Below, piece by piece: positions 33,618 to 42,700 of a DNA stretch of 64,000 nt. Source of the stretch: Gymnodinialimonas sp. 202GB13-11 (GTDB lineage Bacteria > Pseudomonadota > Alphaproteobacteria > Rhodobacterales > Rhodobacteraceae); contig NZ_JBFRBH010000001.1 of NCBI RefSeq assembly GCF_040932485.1, forward strand, positions 1 through 64,000, read 5' to 3'. The position numbers and the translations under genes are program-made. The notes under the pieces are model-generated. The model ran no database searches and had not been told where the DNA came from. It saw only the letters and a program-made list of their open reading frames with translations. How positions within the stretch are numbered: the stretch's first letter is position 1; the number at the start of each line of letters is the position of its first letter.

Positions 33618-33815
33618 ATGAATTGGGACCAAGTCGAAGGCAAATGGAAAGAGATGACTGGCAATGTGAAGGCCAAGTGGGGCGATCTGACCGACGATGA
33701 GATTACCGAGATCGATGGCAACCGGCAGGTCCTGGAAGGAAAGATCCAGGCCAAGTACGGCAAGACCAAGGAAGAAGCTCAAAAGGAAGTCGACGACTTC
33801 CTGAATGAGCACTAA
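33618..33815 (+). CDS. CsbD-family stress protein
   Basis: This 65-residue protein begins MNWDQVEGKWKEMTGNVK, the CsbD signature, and continues with KWGDLTDDE and YGKTKEEAQKEVDDFL. CsbD proteins are small, highly charged and made under general stress. The start follows an AGAAGGAAATC ribosome site. A GC-rich hairpin lies 7 bp after the stop. It fits the stress theme of the block. Confidence 0.95.
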   Translation: MNWDQVEGKWKEMTGNVKAKWGDLTDDEITEIDGNRQVLEGKIQAKYGKTKEEAQKEVDDFLNEH

Positions 33816-33845: not shown

Positions 33846-34238
33846 GACGTTCCGCATCCAGTGCGGCAAAAGCTCCTCGCTTACTGTGAACCACCCAGGT
33901 CAGAATGGTTAACACGCGTAGACTGATGTTGGGGAACGCCCGACCTACCGGCTTCAAATAGACACTCATCCGTTGTCGATGATTGGTAGCAGTTCTCGCG
34001 GCCTCGAAATTCAATAGTAGGTTGCATCGTGATCATCGTGACCGGCCCATTCCGGACCTTGGACACGCGGTCAAGGTGCTGCGGCTGCAGCCCGCTTAGC
34101 GGTCATTCGCTACAAGAATCTGAACCTGAGATCCAGAGGGCTCAACCGAAAACAAATTCAAATGCTTGCGCCAAACCGGTTCCCCATCTCCATCTGCTTC
34201 AGTAGGGTGGCCCCGAGGGGCCTAGAGCAGGGAAGAAC
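33846..34238. other. Boundary stretch upstream of the type IIG-like gene
   Basis: No gene was recognised. AGCGGTCATTCG at 34098-34109 resembles a short motif found in other gene-free stretches here. The base composition becomes more A+T-rich towards 34.15 kb, which suggests the start of a transferred segment. Confidence 0.4.
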
Positions 34239-37200
34239 GTGAGTGAACAGCAAGCTATCAAGAGTATCGTAGAACGACTAGCGGACAGATCGTTCGAGCG
34301 TTCGGAAGCAACCATACAGGCTGACATCCGCCAACTTTTGTTGACGGCTCCTTTTGATATCGAAGAAGACTTTTTGGACGCTCCGCTGGAAGTTCCCGTG
34401 GGTGACGGTCGAAGGATCGATATTGAGATTGGACTCAGCGTTATCGAAGTAAAGAAAGATCTGCGAAGGGAAAGCCTGCGCAAAGAGGCCGTTTCTCAGT
34501 TGGCTGGCTATGTGGCCACGAGAAGCAATGATCTTGGGCAGCGCTACACCGGTATTTTGACTGATGGCATCTTGTGGTCGGGGTTCCACCTGTCGGAAAA
34601 TGCCCAGCTGATCGAAGTTTCCTCCGTTCGACTGGAGAGCAAGCCTGACAGCATAGACCAGTTTGTTTTTTGGCTTGAGGGCTTCTTGGCAACGGCCAAG
34701 AACATTACGCCAAGTCCAACCAACATTAAGTCAAGGCTCGGAGAAAAGAGCTCGGCCCACTCGTTGGATCGATCAAGCATCGCGGATCTTTATTCTCGTC
34801 ACAAAGAGTTACCAACAGTCGCTTTGAAAAGAGAACTATGGGCAAAACTCTTAACGACTGCACTAGGAACGCAGTTTCCCGACACTGATGAGTTGTTTGT
34901 CGAACATACGCTTCTTGTGCTTTCCGCAGAAATCGTTGCACACGCCGTAGTTGGCTTTGATCTATCGAGTCAGAATCCGACATCTATGGTAACTGGAGCG
35001 CTTTTTTCGCAGGCTCAAATTTATGGGGTTGTTGAGGCTGATTTTTTCGACTGGATAATAGAAGTTCCTGGTGGTGACCGCTTTGTTCGATCCTTGGCCC
35101 GACGGCTGTCTAGGTTCAATTGGAGTGATGCCCAACATGATGTGATGAAGGTACTGTACGAGTCTGTAATCAGCCCCGAACAACGCAAAGCGCTTGGAGA
35201 ATACTATACGCCTGACTGGCTTGCGGAACAGGTCGTATCAACTGCGATCGACAGCCCATTGGACCAATCAGTTCTAGACCCGGCCTGCGGGTCGGGAACA
35301 TTTCTATTTCATGCTATTCGGTGTCACCTGCGCGCCGCCAAAGAAGCAGGAATCGGAGATGCTCAGCAAACTTCGAGTGTTGTTGAACACATATTTGGCA
35401 TCGATATTCATCCAGTTGCCGTCACTCTCGCTCGCGTAACTTATTTGCTAGCTCTGGGCACAGAGCGACTAAGGCGTCCAGACAGACCAGCAATTACTAT
35501 CCCTGTATTTCTTGGTGACAGTATGCAATGGGGCGCGTCGGAGGATATCTTCGGACACGACATGCTGACCATCCCTACATCTTCAGGGATGACGCTCATT
35601 CCCGAAGAACTCAAGTTTCCTGATAGGCTACTGGACGATGCTGGTGTGTTCGATCGACTTGTGGCGGAGATGTCCGAACGTGTGCATCAAAGATCGGCGG
35701 GTTCAGCGGTACCGTCGTTGGCTGCCACCTTTCGGCGATATGGTATATCCAGCGAAGATAAAAGTATTTTGTCTGAAACGTTTTCCCTTATGTGCTCACT
35801 GCATGATCAAGGGCGAGACCATATTTGGGGGTACTACGTCCGGAATGTCGCTAGACCCAGGTGGCTAAGCCGGTCAGGGAACAGAGTCGACGTGTTGGTT
35901 GGTAACCCACCTTGGCTTTCTTATCGTTTCATGCCGGAGGAGGTACAAAACGCATTCAAGGAAATGTCGAAAGCACGCGGTTTGTGGCATGGGGCATCAG
36001 TTGCGACCAACCAAGATCTATCATCACTCTTTGTTTGTCGAGTTGCACAACTCTATTTGAGGTCTGCTGGGCGGTTTGGTTTTGTTCTGCCCGAGGCCGC
36101 ACTTACGCGAGCTCAGTTTAAAGGTTTTCGGACCGGCTCCTATCCCAGCCCTCGTGAACCAGTTGGATTAGCCTTTGAAAGGCCATGGTCGCTAAATGCT
36201 GTGAAACCAGCCTTCTTCCCGGTGCCCGCATGCGCGATCTTCGGGACAAGAAACGAAAATGCGCCGACCGGTCTGACAATGCCACCAGATAGGTGGGCTG
36301 GGCGCTTGCCATCAAGCGGGTCGAATTGGTCGGAGGCAGAGGACCACATCAGCGTGGAACCGGGGACCGAGACAAATACTAATGATGCACAACTCAGCCC
36401 TTATCATCCTCGCTTCAATCAAGGCGCATCGCTGGTACCTCGCATGCTGTTTTCGGTTCACGTTTCAAATACAAATCCATTGGGCTCTGGTGCTGGATGG
36501 GTTGCAGTTGAATCTGCAAGATCAAACCAAGAGAAAAAGCCTTGGAAGGAACTCCCCGATCTCGAAGGATCTGTTGAGTCCCAGTTCATCCGCGAGATGC
36601 TACTTGGAGAGTCGATTGCACCTTTTTTAGTTCGGAACTCGCAAACAGTAGTGGTTCCCTTAGAGAACAACACTCTGCTTTCTGCCGATGATGAACGACT
36701 GGATCATTTTCCCGGGATGGCTAAGTGGTGGCGATCTGCAGAGGAAGTTTGGTCTGAAAATCGCGCCAGCGCTCGCCTCAGCCTCAGCGAACAAGCTAAC
36801 TACCGAAACAAGTTGACTGACCAAATCAGTACCGCAAGTACTCGTGTGGTCTACGGTGCCTCTGGCACGTATTTGTCAGCCGCTCGCATCGACGACTCCG
36901 CGATCCTAATTGACACCAAACTTTATTGGTGTGCGACGAATACAAGCAATGAAGCGGAATATCTGGTTACCGTCTTGAATGCCCCGATCACGACTGAACG
37001 GGTTCGACCACTCCAATCGAGGGGCGAACACAATCCCAGAGATTTTCACAAGCATGTTTGGAAACTACCGATCCCTGAATATGATGAGAGCAATAGTTTA
37101 CATAGGGAACTTGTAGAAGTTGGAGGTGAGTGCGCGGTTTTCGTCGCTGGACTTGAACTCCCAAAATCAGTCCGCTTCGAGAGCGTACGTAGGTTTATTC

Positions 37201-37271
37201 GAGACGAACTTGAAGCTGCTGGATACTCGTTGAGACTTAATGATTTGGTTGGAAATCTGCTTGGACGATGA
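34239..37271 (+). CDS. Type IIG-like restriction enzyme: nuclease-methylase fusion
   Basis: This 1010-residue protein starts at GTG 34239. Near the N-terminus a PD-(D/E)xK-type site is visible as Asp61, Glu70 and Lys72 (RIDIEIGLSVIEVKK). A helical region follows. The N6-adenine methylase domain begins with ALGEYYTPDWLAE and has motif I DPACGSGTF (347-355), FGIDIHPVAV after it, and motif IV NPPW (556-559). The C-terminal third is likely the target-recognition part (Eco57I-like). Such proteins cleave and methylate DNA by one polypeptide. The gene is more A+T-rich than its surroundings, consistent with transfer. Alternatively it could be a methylase with a dead nuclease domain. Confidence 0.88.
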   Translation: MSEQQAIKSIVERLADRSFERSEATIQADIRQLLLTAPFDIEEDFLDAPLEVPVGDGRRIDIEIGLSVIEVKKDLRRESLRKEAVSQLAGYVATRSNDLGQRYTGILTDGILWSGFHLSENAQLIEVSSVRLESKPDSIDQFVFWLEGFLATAKNITPSPTNIKSRLGEKSSAHSLDRSSIADLYSRHKELPTVALKRELWAKLLTTALGTQFPDTDELFVEHTLLVLSAEIVAHAVVGFDLSSQNPTSMVTGALFSQAQIYGVVEADFFDWIIEVPGGDRFVRSLARRLSRFNWSDAQHDVMKVLYESVISPEQRKALGEYYTPDWLAEQVVSTAIDSPLDQSVLDPACGSGTFLFHAIRCHLRAAKEAGIGDAQQTSSVVEHIFGIDIHPVAVTLARVTYLLALGTERLRRPDRPAITIPVFLGDSMQWGASEDIFGHDMLTIPTSSGMTLIPEELKFPDRLLDDAGVFDRLVAEMSERVHQRSAGSAVPSLAATFRRYGISSEDKSILSETFSLMCSLHDQGRDHIWGYYVRNVARPRWLSRSGNRVDVLVGNPPWLSYRFMPEEVQNAFKEMSKARGLWHGASVATNQDLSSLFVCRVAQLYLRSAGRFGFVLPEAALTRAQFKGFRTGSYPSPREPVGLAFERPWSLNAVKPAFFPVPACAIFGTRNENAPTGLTMPPDRWAGRLPSSGSNWSEAEDHISVEPGTETNTNDAQLSPYHPRFNQGASLVPRMLFSVHVSNTNPLGSGAGWVAVESARSNQEKKPWKELPDLEGSVESQFIREMLLGESIAPFLVRNSQTVVVPLENNTLLSADDERLDHFPGMAKWWRSAEEVWSENRASARLSLSEQANYRNKLTDQISTASTRVVYGASGTYLSAARIDDSAILIDTKLYWCATNTSNEAEYLVTVLNAPITTERVRPLQSRGEHNPRDFHKHVWKLPIPEYDESNSLHRELVEVGGECAVFVAGLELPKSVRFESVRRFIRDELEAAGYSLRLNDLVGNLLGR

Positions 37272-37410
37272 AGAGACAAAAGCTGGCTTGCACTCACTAC
37301 GCGGTGAGACTGGATAGGACAGGTTCCACATGTTCATGATACGTTCTTTTCACTCAACGGCGTACTTGCTTGTTTTGAGCAATCGTTTGGAGGCCAGTTC
37401 GGACAGATAG

Positions 37411-38187
37411 ATGGCAGAAACCCAGATCGAATGGACCGACGCGACTTGGAATCCTGTTGCGGGATGCAGCATCCAGTCCGCGGGATGCACCCATTGCTAC
37501 GCGATGCAGATGGCCAAACGCCTCGAAGCTATGGGGATGGAGAAGTACGAGGGTCTGACCCGCCGGAGCGGGGATAGGACGGTCTGGACGGGTGTTGTCA
37601 GGCTCGATGAGAAATCTCTCGACGTTCCGCTCAGATGGAAGAAACCGCGGAAAATCTTCGTCAATTCAATGAGTGACCTTTTCCACGAGCAAGTGCCTGA
37701 AAACTTTGTCGGGAAGGTCTGGGATGTGATGCGGCGGACGCCCCAGCATCACTACCAAATTCTGACGAAGCGACCTGATCGCATGGCAGAAATTGTTGAA
37801 CAGATTACGGATGTGCCTCTTTCCAATGTCTGGCTTGGGACCAGCGTAGAAGACCGGGAGGTTATCGGGCGCATTAGCGACCTCAGACGGGTGCCGGCCG
37901 CTATCAGGTTCATATCCTTTGAGCCCCTCATCGGCTCGGTTGGTGGTGTTGATCTAGAAGGCATTCACTGGGCGATTGTTGGCGGTGAAAGTGGCCGCCT
38001 GGCACGACCGATCAAGGAAGCTTGGATTGATGAAATTCACGAACAGTGCGTTGATCAGTCTGTAGCATTCTTCTTCAAGCAGTGGGGCACATGGGGAAAG
38101 GACAACAAAAAACGCTCGAAGAAAGCAAACGGTCGCGAATATCGCGGTCAGGTTTGGGATGAAATGCCGGTAACAGCCGCGCTGTGA
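37411..38187 (+). CDS. DUF5131 (phage Gp37/Gp68-like) three-Cys-motif protein
   Basis: The 258-residue protein carries an N-terminal Cys19-x6-Cys26-x2-Cys29 motif inside WNPVAGCSIQSAGCTHCYA, recalling iron-sulphur-binding radical-SAM-like proteins, though the spacing differs from CxxxCxxC. Other family blocks are ILTKRPDRM, LSNVWLGTSVE, IRFISFEPLIG, AIVGGESG and FFKQWG. Its biochemical function is unknown. It is 139 bp after the type IIG-like gene and 24 bp before its usual partner TcmP. Homologues are found in phages and mobile islands. Confidence 0.92.
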   Translation: MAETQIEWTDATWNPVAGCSIQSAGCTHCYAMQMAKRLEAMGMEKYEGLTRRSGDRTVWTGVVRLDEKSLDVPLRWKKPRKIFVNSMSDLFHEQVPENFVGKVWDVMRRTPQHHYQILTKRPDRMAEIVEQITDVPLSNVWLGTSVEDREVIGRISDLRRVPAAIRFISFEPLIGSVGGVDLEGIHWAIVGGESGRLARPIKEAWIDEIHEQCVDQSVAFFFKQWGTWGKDNKKRSKKANGREYRGQVWDEMPVTAAL

Positions 38188-38211
38188 CCACTTGGGAAAA
38201 CTGGGGCTCGT

Positions 38212-39477
38212 ATGGCCAAGAAAGAATATGATTGGCTTAACGGGGCCGAGTTGCTGGATCACACCAAGCGCAAGCTAAAGATCCTCGACGACTATCTGTT
38301 CGACTACCTTACGATCAGATGCCAGCTGCCACAGCAACAGAAATTCCGTTTAGCGATTGTCGATGGCTTCGCGGGGGGCGGCCGCTATGACTGCGGTTCG
38401 GCGGGATCACCGATCGTCTTCATCCAGGGACTGGAGCGCGCGCTCACCAAGATCAATATTGATCGATTGGTACAAGGCCTCGGCGAGATCGAACTTGAAT
38501 GCCTGCTGATCCTAAACGATCGGGACGGTGAAGTTGTCGAACTCCTGAAGAGAAACTGCGCACCGCTGTTGGCGGCGATCAAGACACAGACACCCAAGCT
38601 GCACGTGCAGCCGGTTTTCATGGTTGAGACCTTCGAGAAGGCTCACCCGGAGATCAAGGCCTTGATCCAACAGGGTCGGTACCGGAACGTGTTGTTCAAT
38701 CTGGACCAGTGTGGCGTGTCACAGATCAATCTCGATACCGTGCTCGACATCATGAATGTTAGCTCGTCAGTCGAGATTTTCTACACGTTCATGGTCAAGT
38801 CACTCCTCGCCTATCTTTCGAAGAACAATCCCACGCGTCTGGCCTCTCAACTGAAAGCACTGGATGTGAGCGCCGGTGAGCAAACAAAACTGCATCAAGG
38901 GACAAGCAACGACGCGTGGATGGGGGCCGCGGAGCGCCTCGTCTTCGAGAATTTTCATCGCTTTGCCCGGTACGTAAGCCCATTCTCAATCAACAATCCT
39001 GATGGTTGGCGATACTGGCTGATCCATTTTTCCAATTCTTACCGTGCCCGACAGGCGTACAACATGGTGCTGCATGACAATGCTTCGGCCCAGGCCCATT
39101 TCGGTCGGTCTGGACTGAATATGCTGAGCTATGATCCAAGAGACGACGAAGGTCAGGCCTATCTGTTTGATACATCCGGCAGAAAGAAAGCCAGAGACCA
39201 ACTGATGTATGACATCCCGCGTCTTGTAACAGATCAGGGTGACGCAATTAGTGTCGAGGCCTTCTATGAGGGCATCTACAACCTCACACCCGCTCACCGA
39301 GATGACATTCACTCTGCAATCGGCAACAACCCAGACCTTGAAGTTTTTACGCCATCAGGCGGCAAACGGCAAAAGTCGACGACAATATCCGCCGGCGATA
39401 CGCTCAAAATGAAAAGCCAGAAGAGTTTTTTCCCTATGTTTCCTCCATTGCCGCCGAAACGAAAAAAGCGCGAGTAG
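38212..39477 (+). CDS. tcmP: Three-Cys-motif partner protein TcmP
   Basis: This 421-residue protein starts 24 bp after the DUF5131 stop. It has FRLAIVDGFAGGGRYDCGS at about 45-63; DGFAGGG (51-57) looks like motif I of a SAM-binding Rossmann fold. The CGVSQINLD region and SYRARQAYNMVLH segment are also typical of the TcmP family. TcmP is defined by its constant association with the three-Cys-motif protein. The activity of the pair is unproven; nucleic acid or protein modification has been a guess. A basic C-terminal tail (PPKRKKRE) is unusual. Confidence 0.88.
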   Translation: MAKKEYDWLNGAELLDHTKRKLKILDDYLFDYLTIRCQLPQQQKFRLAIVDGFAGGGRYDCGSAGSPIVFIQGLERALTKINIDRLVQGLGEIELECLLILNDRDGEVVELLKRNCAPLLAAIKTQTPKLHVQPVFMVETFEKAHPEIKALIQQGRYRNVLFNLDQCGVSQINLDTVLDIMNVSSSVEIFYTFMVKSLLAYLSKNNPTRLASQLKALDVSAGEQTKLHQGTSNDAWMGAAERLVFENFHRFARYVSPFSINNPDGWRYWLIHFSNSYRARQAYNMVLHDNASAQAHFGRSGLNMLSYDPRDDEGQAYLFDTSGRKKARDQLMYDIPRLVTDQGDAISVEAFYEGIYNLTPAHRDDIHSAIGNNPDLEVFTPSGGKRQKSTTISAGDTLKMKSQKSFFPMFPPLPPKRKKRE

Positions 39478-39587
39478 CTCGTAATCTAATTCGTGACTTG
39501 CTAAAGAGTAGACAGATTCAACGTCTGCTTTTTGGGACAGCGAGTCTACTTTCTGCGTAGGCAGCGAAGGTCCGTTTCCCGCCCATG

Positions 39588-41165
39588 CTGTTGAAAAACT
39601 CTGTGTTGCAGTGCGGCAAGCCGTTTGATTCACTCGATTTATCGAGATTGGGAGGATCGGGCGATGATGGGCATGCAAAAGGTTGAAGCGCAGCTGTTTT
39701 ATGAGTTCGATTTAGACGCTCACGTGCCGCCCAATCACGTACTGAGAGAGATTGACCGGTTCCTCGACATGGGCGACATGCGGGCGAAGCTGCAGCCGTT
39801 CTACAGCCATACGGGTCGCCCTTCGATTGATCCCGAGCTCATCGTCCGGATGCTTGTGATTGGTTATGTGATGGGCATTCGTTCTGAGCGTCGCCTTTGT
39901 CAGGAGGTGCATCTCAATTTGGCGTATCGTTGGTTTTGCCGCCTTGGACTGGACGACAAGGTCCCTGACCATTCGTCCTTCTCACGCTACCGCCATGGCA
40001 AGTTCCGTGACAGCGACTTACTGCGTCACATCTTCGAGGCAACTGTGGAGCGCTGCCTGAAGGAAGACCTCGTCTCCGGCGAGGGCTTCGCGGTTGACGC
40101 CAGCCTGATCCCTGCGGATGCCAACAAAGCCCGTTCCATTGCAGCTAAGGATTGGAACGAAGATGTCGCCCGCGACGCAGGCAACCGCGCGGCTCGAGAA
40201 TACTTGGAAACACTTGATGACGCGGCTTTTGGCGCGGCGTCGCCTGTTCAGCCCAAGTTCGTGGCCAAGTCAGATCCGGCGGCCCAGTGGACGCGCGCTG
40301 AGGAAAGCCGCCCCTACTTCGCCTATGCTACGAACTACCTGATCGACACGAAGAGCTCTGTCATCATGGACGTTGAGGCGACGCGTGCGATCCGACAAGC
40401 AGAGGTGGGTGCCTCGCAAACAATGCTGGATCGCACGGAAAGACGCTTCGGTATCAGGCCGGACTGGCTTGCCGCGGACACGGCCTATGGCTCCAGCGAT
40501 AACTTGGGACGGCTGGTCAAGAAGCGTGGCATCATTCCATTCATTCCGGTGATCGATCACTCAAACCGCAAAGACGGCGCATGGACACGGTTCGAGTTTG
40601 AATATGACGAAGCGAACGATCAGTACATCTGCCCGGGAGGCTTCGCGCTCAAGCAGTTCCGCCGGAATTACTCTGATCCCAATCGAGGCAAAGACATCCG
40701 GGGCACTCGAAAATACCGAGCACTCAAGTCCGATTGCGAGCGATGTCCTTCGAAAGAAAAATGCTGCCCTAATGCGAACTGCAGATCTATCAGCCGAGAA
40801 GAGCACGAGGACGCCAGGGACTTCGCACGCTCCAGCCGGAAAACGAAAGCGTACAGAGTCAGCCGCGACAAACGGAAGAAAGTTGAGATGCTCTTTGCGC
40901 ATCTGAAGCGCATCCTGAACCTGACCAGGTTGCGACTACGCGGCTCCAAAGGTGCCAAGGATGAGTTCCTTCTCGCCGCAATCGCACAGAACCTCAGAAA
41001 GCTCGCAAAGCTCAGGCCCAAGAACGTCCAAACGGAGGTTGCGGCATGATCTGAACGATCAAATCTGTACATTTACGTCGCGGCCGGACCAGCGGCCGGG
41101 GCAAACAGCTCACGTAGAAACTCCAGCGGCGATCCCGTCGTCAAATGCGCCGGGTTCTTCAACAG
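39588..41165 (+). mobile_element. IS1182-family element, apparently intact
   Basis: A single intact IS1182-type transposase is flanked by likely terminal repeats: CTGTTGAAAAACTC (39588-39601) and, inverted, GGGTTCTTCAACAG (41152-41165), a 12 of 14 match. The element of about 1.58 kb begins 110 bp after tcmP. Its boundaries are judged by eye. It is tail-to-tail with a second, dead copy. Confidence 0.7.
39664..41049 (+). CDS. IS1182-family transposase
   Basis: I start at 39664 (MMGMQKVEAQLFYEFD), behind GGGAGGA, giving 461 residues. It has the DUF772 N-terminal domain (SHTGRPSIDPELIVRML, GIRSERRLCQEVHLNLAYRW) and the DDE domain: Asp in GFAVDASLIPADANK, Asp in LAADTAYGSS, and a Glu near the C-terminus (KKVEMLFAHLKRI). 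A Cys-rich insertion (CERCPSKEKCCPNANC) is typical of IS1182 and may bind zinc. The frame is uninterrupted. It could be active. Confidence 0.93.
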   Translation: MMGMQKVEAQLFYEFDLDAHVPPNHVLREIDRFLDMGDMRAKLQPFYSHTGRPSIDPELIVRMLVIGYVMGIRSERRLCQEVHLNLAYRWFCRLGLDDKVPDHSSFSRYRHGKFRDSDLLRHIFEATVERCLKEDLVSGEGFAVDASLIPADANKARSIAAKDWNEDVARDAGNRAAREYLETLDDAAFGAASPVQPKFVAKSDPAAQWTRAEESRPYFAYATNYLIDTKSSVIMDVEATRAIRQAEVGASQTMLDRTERRFGIRPDWLAADTAYGSSDNLGRLVKKRGIIPFIPVIDHSNRKDGAWTRFEFEYDEANDQYICPGGFALKQFRRNYSDPNRGKDIRGTRKYRALKSDCERCPSKEKCCPNANCRSISREEHEDARDFARSSRKTKAYRVSRDKRKKVEMLFAHLKRILNLTRLRLRGSKGAKDEFLLAAIAQNLRKLAKLRPKNVQTEVAA

Positions 41166-41177
41166 AACCCACCCATT

Positions 41178-42700
41178 CTGTGGAAAAACAGCGTGTTGCT
41201 GGCGCAGAAAGTGAGCTGGTGAACGCGGCGCAAGCGCCTTTCTTGTCGGGCTTTGCTCGTTTACTGCGGTGCGGGAAAGATCTCGGCTAGTTTGCGGAGG
41301 TTTTGGGCGGTAGCGGCGAGGAGGAATTCGTCGTTCGCGCCGCATGGTCCTCGTAGTCGGAGCCGCCCCAGCCCGAGGATGCGTTTGAGGTGCGCAAAGA
41401 GCATTTCCACTTTCTTCCTGAGCTTCATTGAGATGTCGTATTGGCCGGTTTTGGCGATATCGCGTGCAATATGGCGAGCGTCTTCGTGTTCTTCGCGGGT
41501 TACCTTGCGCGCGTCTACGTTTGAACAGCACTTGGCTTTGGATGAGGAGGCCTGGGACACTTCCTTCAAGGTGCGATAGCGCGCAGTGCCCTTGCCGGTT
41601 GGGCCCCGGTTCGGATCGGAGTAGTTGCGGCGAAACTGCTTGAAGGCGTGTCCTTCGGGACAGATGTACTGGTCGTTCTTGGAATCCCATTCAAAGTCCG
41701 CATGCGTCCATTTCCCATCGCTGCGACCGGACTTGTCGAAGGCAGGTATTTCCGGTGCGATCTTGCGGTCGACCAGCCAGCCTAGCAGGGGCCCAGTTCT
41801 ATACGCCGTGTCCGCAATCAAGCGCTCTGGATGCAAATCAAACTTCTGCTTCACCCGCTTCAGCATCGTCTTAGTCGATCCCACCTCGGCTTGCCGGATC
41901 GAACGGGTCGCTTCGACATCGGCGATCACGCCGTGGTCTGTGTCGATCAGATAATTGTCGGAATTGCTAAAGAATGCAGGACCCTTACGGGCCGCCGTTC
42001 ATTGGCTTGCCCGATCAGAATGAGAGGTGAACTTGGGCTCGACCTCACTTGCCGCGCCGAACGCAGCTTAGTCCAGTGTGTCTAGATACTCGCGAACCGC
42101 GCGAGGTGCATCTTTTGGATCAATGCTTGATGCGTCCCACTCCTCCTTCGGCGTCGAGTTCTGTTTGTTTGCATCAGCCTCGATCAGGCTGGCCTCGATG
42201 GCCATACGCTGACCGCTGACGAGGCCTTCCTCAATGCAGCGTGCCAGGGTCATCTCGAACAGATGACGCAGCAGTTCGTTCTCGCGAAAGCGGCCTTGCC
42301 GGTTCTTCGAGAAGGTGGAGTGGTCGGGAACGCGGTCGGTCGGATCGAGACAGCAGAACCACCGATATGCCAGGTTCAGATGTACCTCTTCGCACAGCCG
42401 CCGCTCAGATCGGATGCCGAAGCGGTAGCCGACAATTAGCATACGGATCAGCAACTCAGGGTCTACCGACGGGCGGCCAGTGTGACTGTAGAACTTTGCG
42501 AGATGCGCGCGGATACTGGTCAAATCAACGAACCGATCAATCGACCGCAACAGGTGGTTTTGAGGCACGTGGTCTTCCAAGGAGAACTCGTAGAACGATG
42601 CCGCCTGCGCTTCCTGCCTCCGTCCCATCATCGCCAATCCCTCCCGACAGGACGAATTGAATCAGCGACTTACGCCCCGATCAAGGAAGAGTTTGTCAAC
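41178..42700 (-). mobile_element. IS1182-family element, dead copy
   Basis: The lower end has CTGTGGAAAAACAG (41178-41191), similar to the left repeat of the intact copy. The upper end has GAGTTTGTCAAC (42689-42700), which read on the minus strand is GTTGACAAACTC. The transposase inside is broken. The copy is a diverged relative, not a recent duplicate, and points toward the intact copy. Confidence 0.6.
41261..42637 (-). pseudogene. IS1182-family transposase with two premature stops
   Basis: All homology is in one frame: MMGRRQEAQAASFYEF, SHTGRPSVDPELLIRML and VPDHSTFSKNR at the 5' part, then a TAA (42068-42070) after YLDTLD, then AAFGAASEVEPKF, then a TGA at the codon for Trp (QWT in the intact copy), then NYLIDTDHGVIADVEATRS to the end at 41261. 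The catalytic blocks (SIRQAEVG, IADTAYR, KKVEMLFAHLKRI) are otherwise preserved. The nonsense mutations are recent compared with frameshift decay. Confidence 0.9.

What the first reader, a model, noticed from the sequence alone, without database searches (positions are those of the whole stretch)
34239..39477. Candidate defence locus: type IIG-like nuclease-methylase with DUF5131 and TcmP
Three same-strand genes sit together with small gaps: a 1010-residue nuclease-methylase fusion (PD-ExK at 61/70/72, DPACGSGTF at 347, NPPW at 556), the three-Cys-motif protein DUF5131, and TcmP. They are more A+T-rich than the flanks and are followed by IS1182 elements. DUF5131 and TcmP are a known but functionally unexplained pair. 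Linking them to a single-chain restriction enzyme suggests a composite anti-mobile-element module, which I have not seen described.
Basis: partly seen in the sequence, partly recalled or inferred. Interest (0 to 1): 0.78.

Follow-up and report, generated by a model that had tools for sequence, protein, structure and literature searches.

The report
Restriction gene beside unrelated mobile pair
A stand-alone restriction-modification gene and a separate mobile two-gene pair of enzymes have landed next to each other in a variable spot of a bacterial chromosome; they look like neighbours, not like one new defence machine.

Summary
In detail: an intact 1010-residue type IIG-like nuclease-methylase, DUF5131 and tcmP lie in order on one strand, just inside a stretch where collinearity with congeners ends. 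The composite module is not supported. DUF5131/TcmP lie near 2 of 80 genome relatives of the nuclease-methylase, 0 of 13 plasmid relatives and 0 of 5 class-survey relatives; 0 of 28 TcmP loci carry it. Two of 80 exceeds a rough random estimate (0.025), but the two arrangements differ. Third-position GC differs too (0.48 against 0.61 and 0.64). The pair is tight: within 62 bp in 26 of 28 class loci, tandem or convergent, and already PADLOC candidate PDC-M30. New here: the DUF5131 model is closest to spore photoproduct lyase (weak match), TcmP looks like a class I methyltransferase with an RlmJ-like profile, and two viral TcmPs adjoin other radical SAM proteins. I read the pair as an exchangeable radical-SAM plus methyltransferase unit acting on nucleic acid; its substrate and role are unknown.

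The parts
34060..34116 (.). left edge of the variable stretch: congeners G396 and G394 stay collinear up to 34059 and 34116, then diverge
   Evidence: the sequence after the breakpoint in G396 has no match in the window's genome (an empty answer without a positive control)
34239..37271 (+). type IIG-like restriction endonuclease-methyltransferase, 1010 aa, stand-alone R-M gene
34419..34454 (+). PD-(D/E)xK nuclease motif, residues D61...E70-x-K72
   Evidence: invariant in the 15 aligned sequences; name of the motif recalled
35079..36158 (+). adenine methyltransferase domain, residues about 281-640: DPACGSGTF at 347 and NPPW at 556
   Evidence: in general the best conserved part, 43-57% identity to the 14 relatives
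36159..37268 (+). C-terminal region, residues 641-1010, presumed target recognition; less conserved, 31-46%
   Evidence: role inferred from position
37411..38187 (+). DUF5131 protein, radical-SAM-like fold, partner of TcmP
37465..37497 (+). invariant three-Cys cluster C19-x6-C26-x2-C29
   Evidence: 27 of 27 in A3, 49 of 49 in A5; aligns with the Cys of the radical SAM partner in L288
37981..37995 (+). invariant GGESG, residues 191-195
38212..39477 (+). TcmP, class I methyltransferase-like fold with C-terminal winged helix
38362..38382 (+). TcmP motif I, residues 51-57 (D51 and G55 invariant)
   Evidence: name of the motif recalled
38704..38706 (+). TcmP D165, invariant; aligned with the DPP motif of RlmJ relatives
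39127..39360 (+). GMT-like winged helix-turn-helix domain of TcmP, residues 306-383
   Evidence: PF22560 4.3e-8
39625..41049 (+). IS1182-family transposase, intact; longest other match in the genome is 66% identical over 1.2 kb
41261..42637 (-). second copy of the same IS family, broken into two frames

Best explanation
The locus is two independent cargo units that sit side by side in a variable chromosomal spot. Unit 1 is a stand-alone type IIG-like restriction-modification enzyme: one chain that would methylate adenine in its target (motifs DPACGSGTF and NPPW) and cut unmodified DNA with its N-terminal PD-(D/E)xK domain. Unit 2 is the DUF5131-TcmP mobile pair. DUF5131 is most likely a radical-SAM-type enzyme (three invariant Cys, predicted fold closest to spore photoproduct lyase). 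TcmP is most likely a class I SAM-methyltransferase fold related to RlmJ with a winged helix that probably binds nucleic acid. Together they most likely modify, or reverse a modification of, a nucleic acid base, probably as a prophage- and plasmid-borne defence or exclusion function. Shown: the anatomy, the tight pairing, the loose link to unit 1. Predicted: the folds. Inferred: catalysis, nucleic-acid substrate, defence role. The confidence is for the two-unit reading; for the enzymatic reading of the pair I would put about 0.5, for defence less.
For: Independence of unit 1: of 13 plasmid neighbourhoods of its relatives none holds DUF5131/TcmP by tblastn or profile; 2 of 80 genome relatives do; 0 of 28 TcmP loci hold it. 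GC3 0.477 versus 0.610 and 0.637. Integrity of unit 2: DUF5131 lies within 62 bp of TcmP in 26 of 28 class loci, 767 bp away in one, and is missing in one where TcmP is at a contig edge; it is within 40 bp in 9 and 596 bp in 1 of the 10 plasmid/phage regions, and within 62 bp in 35 of 35 viral loci that hold both, 18 of them convergent. All 29 genomes of 385 with TcmP over the cut-off also have DUF5131. Chemistry: DUF5131 model pLDDT 90, top six Foldseek hits spore photoproduct lyase, best 5.5e-4; TcmP model pLDDT 80, of the 15 hits at E<=0.001 eight are titled methyltransferases, one is SAM-bound Coq5 and three are Rv0187, a methyltransferase as I recall; TcmP versus RlmJ-family profile P 3.9e-6, control TcmP versus SPL 0.48. 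In L280 and L288 TcmP instead adjoins an SPL-like protein (TIGR04070 1.4e-21; PF20903 8e-17, over its cut-off) and a Radical_SAM protein (PF04055 3e-16, over its cut-off). Defence hint: PADLOC PDC-M30/M41; in Gordonia phage Easley the pair lies between integrase and immunity repressor.
Against: Two of 80 is far above a rough random-placement estimate of 0.025 (P 3e-4; class prevalence and a mean genome of 3.6 Mb assumed for loci of many phyla), and L280/L288 add two TcmPs near methylase-domain relatives among 36 viral loci, so some association exists. A broader methylase profile rings near 3 of 73 TcmP loci (1 of 28, 2 of 10, 0 of 35) against 0 of 15 control stretches. The fold matches are weak: DUF5131 to SPL TM 0.44-0.48 by query length, rmsd 6-11; TcmP TM 0.23-0.28 and rmsd 7-12 for its methyltransferase matches at E<=0.001, and the other three of those 15 hits are not methyltransferases (SpeE, an OCCM chain, a vaccinia polymerase complex chain). 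DUF5131 lacks the canonical CxxxCxxC, has no PF04055 hit and no profile match to SPL (P 0.11); no solved-structure hit by profile. TcmP lacks DPPY. Neighbours of 14 chromosomal TcmP loci are not enriched in PADLOC families over control stretches (6 member hits of 135 ORFs versus 8 of 107), which weakens the defence reading.
Confidence: 0.75

Rival explanations
1. Composite module: the three proteins work as one anti-mobile-element system, the DUF5131/TcmP pair altering DNA so that the nuclease-methylase discriminates self from foreign.
For: Same strand, small gaps; the association is rarer than a module but above a rough random estimate; TcmP pairs also lie near other large methylase-type genes in L186, L327 and L329, and TcmP in viral L280 and L288.
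Against: 2 of 80, 0 of 13, 0 of 5 and 0 of 28 co-occurrence; different arrangements in L076 and L083; different GC3; 139-bp gap.
Confidence: 0.08
2. DUF5131-TcmP is a DNA repair or damage-tolerance pair, not a defence: a photoproduct-lyase-like enzyme guided by a methyltransferase-like DNA-binding partner.
For: Spore photoproduct lyase is the closest solved fold; an SPL-like protein takes the place of DUF5131 in L280; in L333 the pair adjoins genes annotated DNA polymerase Y family and error-prone DNA polymerase.
Against: Patchy, mobile distribution on plasmids and phages; neighbours with defence-type names in 6 of the 9 plasmid regions read; no UV data.
Confidence: 0.2
3. DUF5131-TcmP modifies RNA (rRNA or tRNA), protecting the translation apparatus from phage or toxin attack.
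For: TcmP's profile matches the RlmJ-type family; RlmJ structures are 5 of 8 hits of a weak profile search (best E 0.13, not significant); RlmJ methylates 23S rRNA (recalled).
Against: RlmJ similarity covers 68 columns only; the winged helix fits DNA equally; no RNA data.
Confidence: 0.2

Closest known systems
PADLOC candidate systems PDC-M30 and PDC-M41 (TcmP-like A plus DUF5131 B)
   Same: Same two families side by side: PDC-M30B/M41B 2e-97 and 4e-104, PDC-M30A 6e-19
   Different: The library gives no mechanism; here the place beside TcmP is seen to be filled by other radical SAM proteins in two viral contigs
Type IIG restriction-modification enzymes (PADLOC REase_MTase_IIG; a 47% identical relative is annotated as BseRI in L035; solved: RM.BsaXI)
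   Same: Nuclease motif, adenine methylase and presumed recognition region in one chain
   Different: No tested activity or recognition site; solved structures match only in the methylase part
Spore photoproduct lyase
   Same: Best six structural matches of the DUF5131 model
   Different: Cys spacing x6/x2 instead of x3/x2; no sequence-profile match; TM below 0.5
RlmJ/RsmJ family methyltransferases (PF04378)
   Same: Profile match to TcmP, P 3.9e-6, through the GSP and DP motifs
   Different: TcmP has D-[PQ]-x-G in nearly all sequences in place of DPP[FY] and, in the window's long form, an added winged helix
Type ISP enzyme beside a DUF5131-TcmP pair on Rhizobium rhizogenes pC6.5b (L327)
   Same: A large R-M gene directly upstream of the pair on the same strand
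   Different: Annotated as another R-M type; suggests that the R-M neighbour is not fixed

Membership tests
Type IIG restriction-modification enzyme | PD-(D/E)xK nuclease motif and adenine methylase motifs in one chain | tested here: met
   D61, E70, K72, D347, CGSG at 350-353 and NPPW invariant in 15 sequences; PDLC03630 3e-78
Type IIG restriction-modification enzyme | works without separate nuclease, specificity or helicase subunits | tested here: inconclusive
   11 annotated plasmid neighbourhoods of relatives, compared by eye, show no constant partner (L033 and L041 have no annotation); enzymology not tested
Type IIG restriction-modification enzyme | cuts DNA near a recognised site and methylates it | not testable with these tools
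   needs expression and methylome or cleavage assays
PDC-M30 candidate system | M30A-type and M30B-type genes adjacent | tested here: met
   gap 24 bp
PDC-M30 candidate system | protects against phage | not testable with these tools
   only a correlation seen in print: predicted in 32 of 100 P. aeruginosa strains, 68.8% of them resistant (PMC10855318, passages)
Radical SAM superfamily (DUF5131) | barrel fold of radical SAM enzymes | tested here: met
   SPL (ranks 1-6), lipoyl synthase, viperin and NifB among the best 24 Foldseek hits of a model with pLDDT 90; a prediction, TM below 0.5, and other barrels are in the same list
Radical SAM superfamily (DUF5131) | CxxxCxxC cluster motif | tested here: not met
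   C-x6-C-x2-C, invariant; it aligns with the Cys cluster of the L288 radical SAM partner with a 3-residue insertion, so it may work like one but is not filed as a canonical member
Radical SAM superfamily (DUF5131) | match to PF04055 | tested here: not met
   no match at E up to 1
RlmJ family (TcmP) | class I methyltransferase fold with RlmJ-like profile | tested here: met
   negative control TcmP versus SPL
RlmJ family (TcmP) | DPP[FY] catalytic motif | tested here: not met
   D-[PQ]-x-G in nearly all TcmPs against DPPF or DPSY in A8
BREX PglX | score over the curated cut-off of a PglX model | tested here: not met
   best 35 bits against a cut-off of 400
Composite three-gene module | the three genes recur together | tested here: not met

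The most novel reading that the evidence does not exclude
TcmP is the constant core of a mobile immunity or modification unit whose second slot takes different radical SAM enzymes (DUF5131, an SPL-like protein, or an ordinary Radical_SAM protein): a radical-SAM plus RlmJ-like methyltransferase couple that installs or removes an unusual base modification on phage or host nucleic acid.
Probability: 0.3. Interest if true: 0.75.

Novelty: new member of a known kind. Interest (0 to 1): 0.36.

Why it matters
It removes a tempting but unsupported three-gene system and points at the part worth testing. DUF5131/TcmP is widespread (DUF5131 in 54 and TcmP over its cut-off in 29 of 385 genomes of the class), and my searches of the held papers showed no mechanism for it. 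The fold matches and the partner exchange turn 'unknown pair' into a concrete, testable radical-SAM/methyltransferase hypothesis.

Tried and rejected
Composite module: rejected on the co-occurrence counts. Composite transposon: rejected, both IS1182 copies seen lie to the right of the genes and in opposite orientation. BREX membership of the first gene: scores far below the curated cut-offs. Defence-island enrichment around chromosomal TcmP: tested with 135 neighbour ORFs of 14 loci against 107 ORFs of 11 control stretches (35 further control ORFs from L345-L347 were dropped to stay under the residue limit; ORFs were picked by length, not by a gene finder): not enriched; of 112 Pfam families in the same 135, the 25 shown are mainly repeats and metabolic families, with phage capsid and portal among them. 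SPL homology of DUF5131 by profile: no. Promoter and terminator scans of 33900-39750 gave about as many sites as shuffles. Finding the right edge of the variable stretch: failed, because the congeners differ from one another beyond the breakpoint and the kinase to the right has no close relative in the genus. Naming the host: not achieved. First genome-contig scan with the single protein found no relative. No tool for predicting a complex was available.
Full report
WHAT IS THERE. The first is a 1010-residue nuclease-methylase: Pfam N6_Mtase and Eco57I, PADLOC REase_MTase_IIG at 3e-78. In an alignment of 15 sequences the nuclease residues D61, E70 and K72 and the core of the methylase motifs are invariant; the C-terminal region, presumably the recognition part, is less conserved than the methylase part. 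The second is DUF5131 (7e-104) and the third TcmP (TIGR04474, 2.7e-59) with a winged-helix domain. PADLOC names the last two as candidate systems PDC-M30 and PDC-M41. The motif name PD-(D/E)xK and the class of methylase are recalled, not from a call.

WHERE IT SITS. Two congeners (G396, G394) are 97% and 95% identical to the window over about 9 kb up to 34059 and 34116, and a third (G395) 89% up to 33369; in the 20 kb fetched from each, all three then diverge from the window and from one another. The first gene starts about 120-180 bp after that edge. Two kilobases beyond the breakpoint in G396 have no match in the window's genome (no positive control). So the genes lie at the start of a variable chromosomal stretch. 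Its right edge could not be set. In the 13 genomes of the genus only the window's has a full-length relative of the first gene; G387 has a 28% identical partial match. GC is 51.5% against 58.9% in the 10 kb to the left and 56.2% to the right; GC3 is 0.477 for the first gene but 0.610 and 0.637 for DUF5131 and TcmP, which suggests different recent histories.

DO THE THREE BELONG TOGETHER? From the side of the first gene: 17 plasmid records hold a relative over at least 80% of its length. I read 13 of these 17 (not H8, H11, H17, H18); none has DUF5131 or TcmP by tblastn or profile, nor by annotation in the 11 that carry any. A scan of genome contigs, which keeps the best 80 of 543 relatives found, gave 80 loci; 2 hold the pair, L076 and L083; 47 of the 80 score at least 750 bits with the A1 profile and include both. 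Not all loci have full flanks: 64 of 80 are at least 13 kb long. Of 385 genomes of the class, the protein search gave six clear relatives besides the window; five were held with up to about 8 kb of flank and none has the pair; the sixth (L008) was held with 1.5 kb only. One of these genomes, G227, has a relative and a TcmP on different contigs. Of 36 viral loci, 2 (L280, L288) hold a TcmP without DUF5131; many of the 36 match only in the methylase domain. From the side of TcmP: I fetched 28 of the 30 class places over the cut-off (not the window and the partial G364), several cut short by contig ends; none holds a relative of the first gene at E<=1e-5. A broader methylase profile rings in 1 of 28 class, 2 of 10 plasmid/phage and 0 of 35 viral TcmP loci, and in 0 of 15 control stretches. 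A rough random-placement estimate expects 0.025 pairs in the flanks of the 80 loci (1.2 Mb; class prevalence and a mean genome of 3.6 Mb assumed); two were seen (P 3e-4). Thus the genes meet more often than by blind chance, as genes of shared islands do, but rarely, and in L076 and L083 with different arrangements.

THE PAIR. DUF5131 lies within 62 bp of TcmP in 26 of 28 class loci and 767 bp away in one; in the last, TcmP is at a contig end and no DUF5131 is held. Arrangements of the 27 are tandem with DUF5131 first (19), tandem with TcmP first (5) and convergent (3). In 35 viral loci that hold both, 18 are convergent, 12 TcmP-first and 5 DUF5131-first; in 10 plasmid/phage regions 7 are DUF5131-first, 2 convergent and 1 divergent. 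Linkage is therefore kept without co-transcription. Of the 80 viral DUF5131 loci of one scan (best 80 of 595 relatives), 33 have TcmP and 47 do not (some on short contigs); the latter have longer ORFs (median 333 against 260 residues). In the class, DUF5131 occurs in 54 of 385 genomes and TcmP over its cut-off in 29, all 29 within the 54. Among 50,697 phage records the window's DUF5131 finds 159 and its TcmP 1, by a single-sequence search that misses distant TcmPs such as Easley's.

WHAT THE PAIR MAY DO. Alignments show C19-x6-C26-x2-C29 and GGESG invariant in DUF5131. The model (pLDDT 90) has spore photoproduct lyase as its first six Foldseek matches (best E 5.5e-4, the only one under 0.001; TM 0.44-0.48), with NifB, lipoyl synthase and viperin further down among other barrels. 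The TcmP model (pLDDT 80) matches class I methyltransferases, with low TM scores, and its profile matches the RlmJ family over 68 columns with P 3.9e-6 (probability 87%), while TcmP against SPL gives 0.48 and DUF5131 against RlmJ 0.27. RlmJ structures make up 5 of 8 hits of a weak profile search, best E 0.13. Most telling, in L280 and L288 the gene overlapping TcmP is not DUF5131 but an SPL-like protein (TIGR04070 1.4e-21 but far below its cut-off; PF20903 8e-17, over its cut-off) and a Radical_SAM protein (PF04055 3e-16, with a DUF5131 hit of 9e-5 below the cut-off); the Cys cluster of the latter aligns with that of DUF5131 (P 1.3e-4, probability 53%). Against this: no PF04055 hit for the window's DUF5131, no SPL profile match (P 0.11), non-canonical Cys spacing, and only two cases of exchange.

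IS IT DEFENCE? For: PADLOC listing; PDC-M30 was predicted in 32 of 100 P. aeruginosa strains and 68.8% of these were phage-resistant (PMC10855318, passages), a correlation without a test of the pair. A table in PMC12445080 lists SMa2243 TcmP directly after SMa2245 Hna in S. meliloti (one passage). In 6 of 9 plasmid regions that I chose from 55 records the pair has neighbours named AbiEi/AbiEii, DncV-like nucleotidyltransferase with patatin, type ISP, CHAT, methyltransferase/helicase, or caspase with dGTPase; in L326, L332 and L333 I saw none; there is no matched control for these. In Gordonia phage Easley it lies between the integrase and the immunity repressor, where TcmP (annotated methyltransferase, TIGR04474 5.5e-55) runs in the repressor's direction. 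Against: chromosomal TcmP neighbours are not enriched in PADLOC families. A repair role is also open: in L333 the pair adjoins genes annotated DNA polymerase Y family and error-prone DNA polymerase.

LITERATURE. DUF5131: no paper in the library. 'Three-Cys-motif partner': three papers, of which I saw passages of two. PDC-M30: passages of PMC10855318 and PMC11878078, which count it by PADLOC; passages of PMC12988326 on other candidates. PF07505, TIGR04474, TIGR04471, PF22560 and 'radical SAM mobile pair': none. Spore photoproduct lyase with antiphage and radical SAM: one paper, seen in the listing only. The library lacks most subscription journals and all bioRxiv preprints, so this does not show that nothing is in print.

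VERDICT. A true observation and an ordinary explanation of the trio: a type IIG-like gene beside a known candidate pair. The pair itself deserves attention.

Noticed in passing
L280:2328-4273 and L288:5035-7079: TcmP beside a radical SAM protein that is not DUF5131 (SPL-like in L280, PF04055 in L288), suggesting an exchangeable partner
   Followed up: partly
L331 (Gordonia phage Easley 29182-31049): DUF5131 and a convergent TcmP annotated as methyltransferase lie between integrase and immunity repressor of the phage
   Followed up: partly
L327:8666-9442, L328:7267-8166, L333:4137-4961: A second, shorter TcmP near the pair, in L327 next to a DEAD/DEAH helicase
   Followed up: partly
L333 (Burkholderia glumae plasmid p79s2p): Two TcmPs and DUF5131 beside DNA polymerase Y family, error-prone DNA polymerase, a radical SAM protein with B12-type family matches, and dTMP kinase
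   Followed up: partly
L196-L275: 47 of 80 viral DUF5131 loci show no TcmP and tend to a longer ORF: perhaps a separate solo phage form of DUF5131 (some contigs are short)
   Followed up: no
L186:7908-12049: A large methylase-type ORF (about 979 aa) directly convergent with TcmP
   Followed up: no
window 33618-33815: Small gene that I read as CsbD-like (recalled), 81% identical DNA in the congener G387; among the last conserved features before the variable stretch
   Followed up: no
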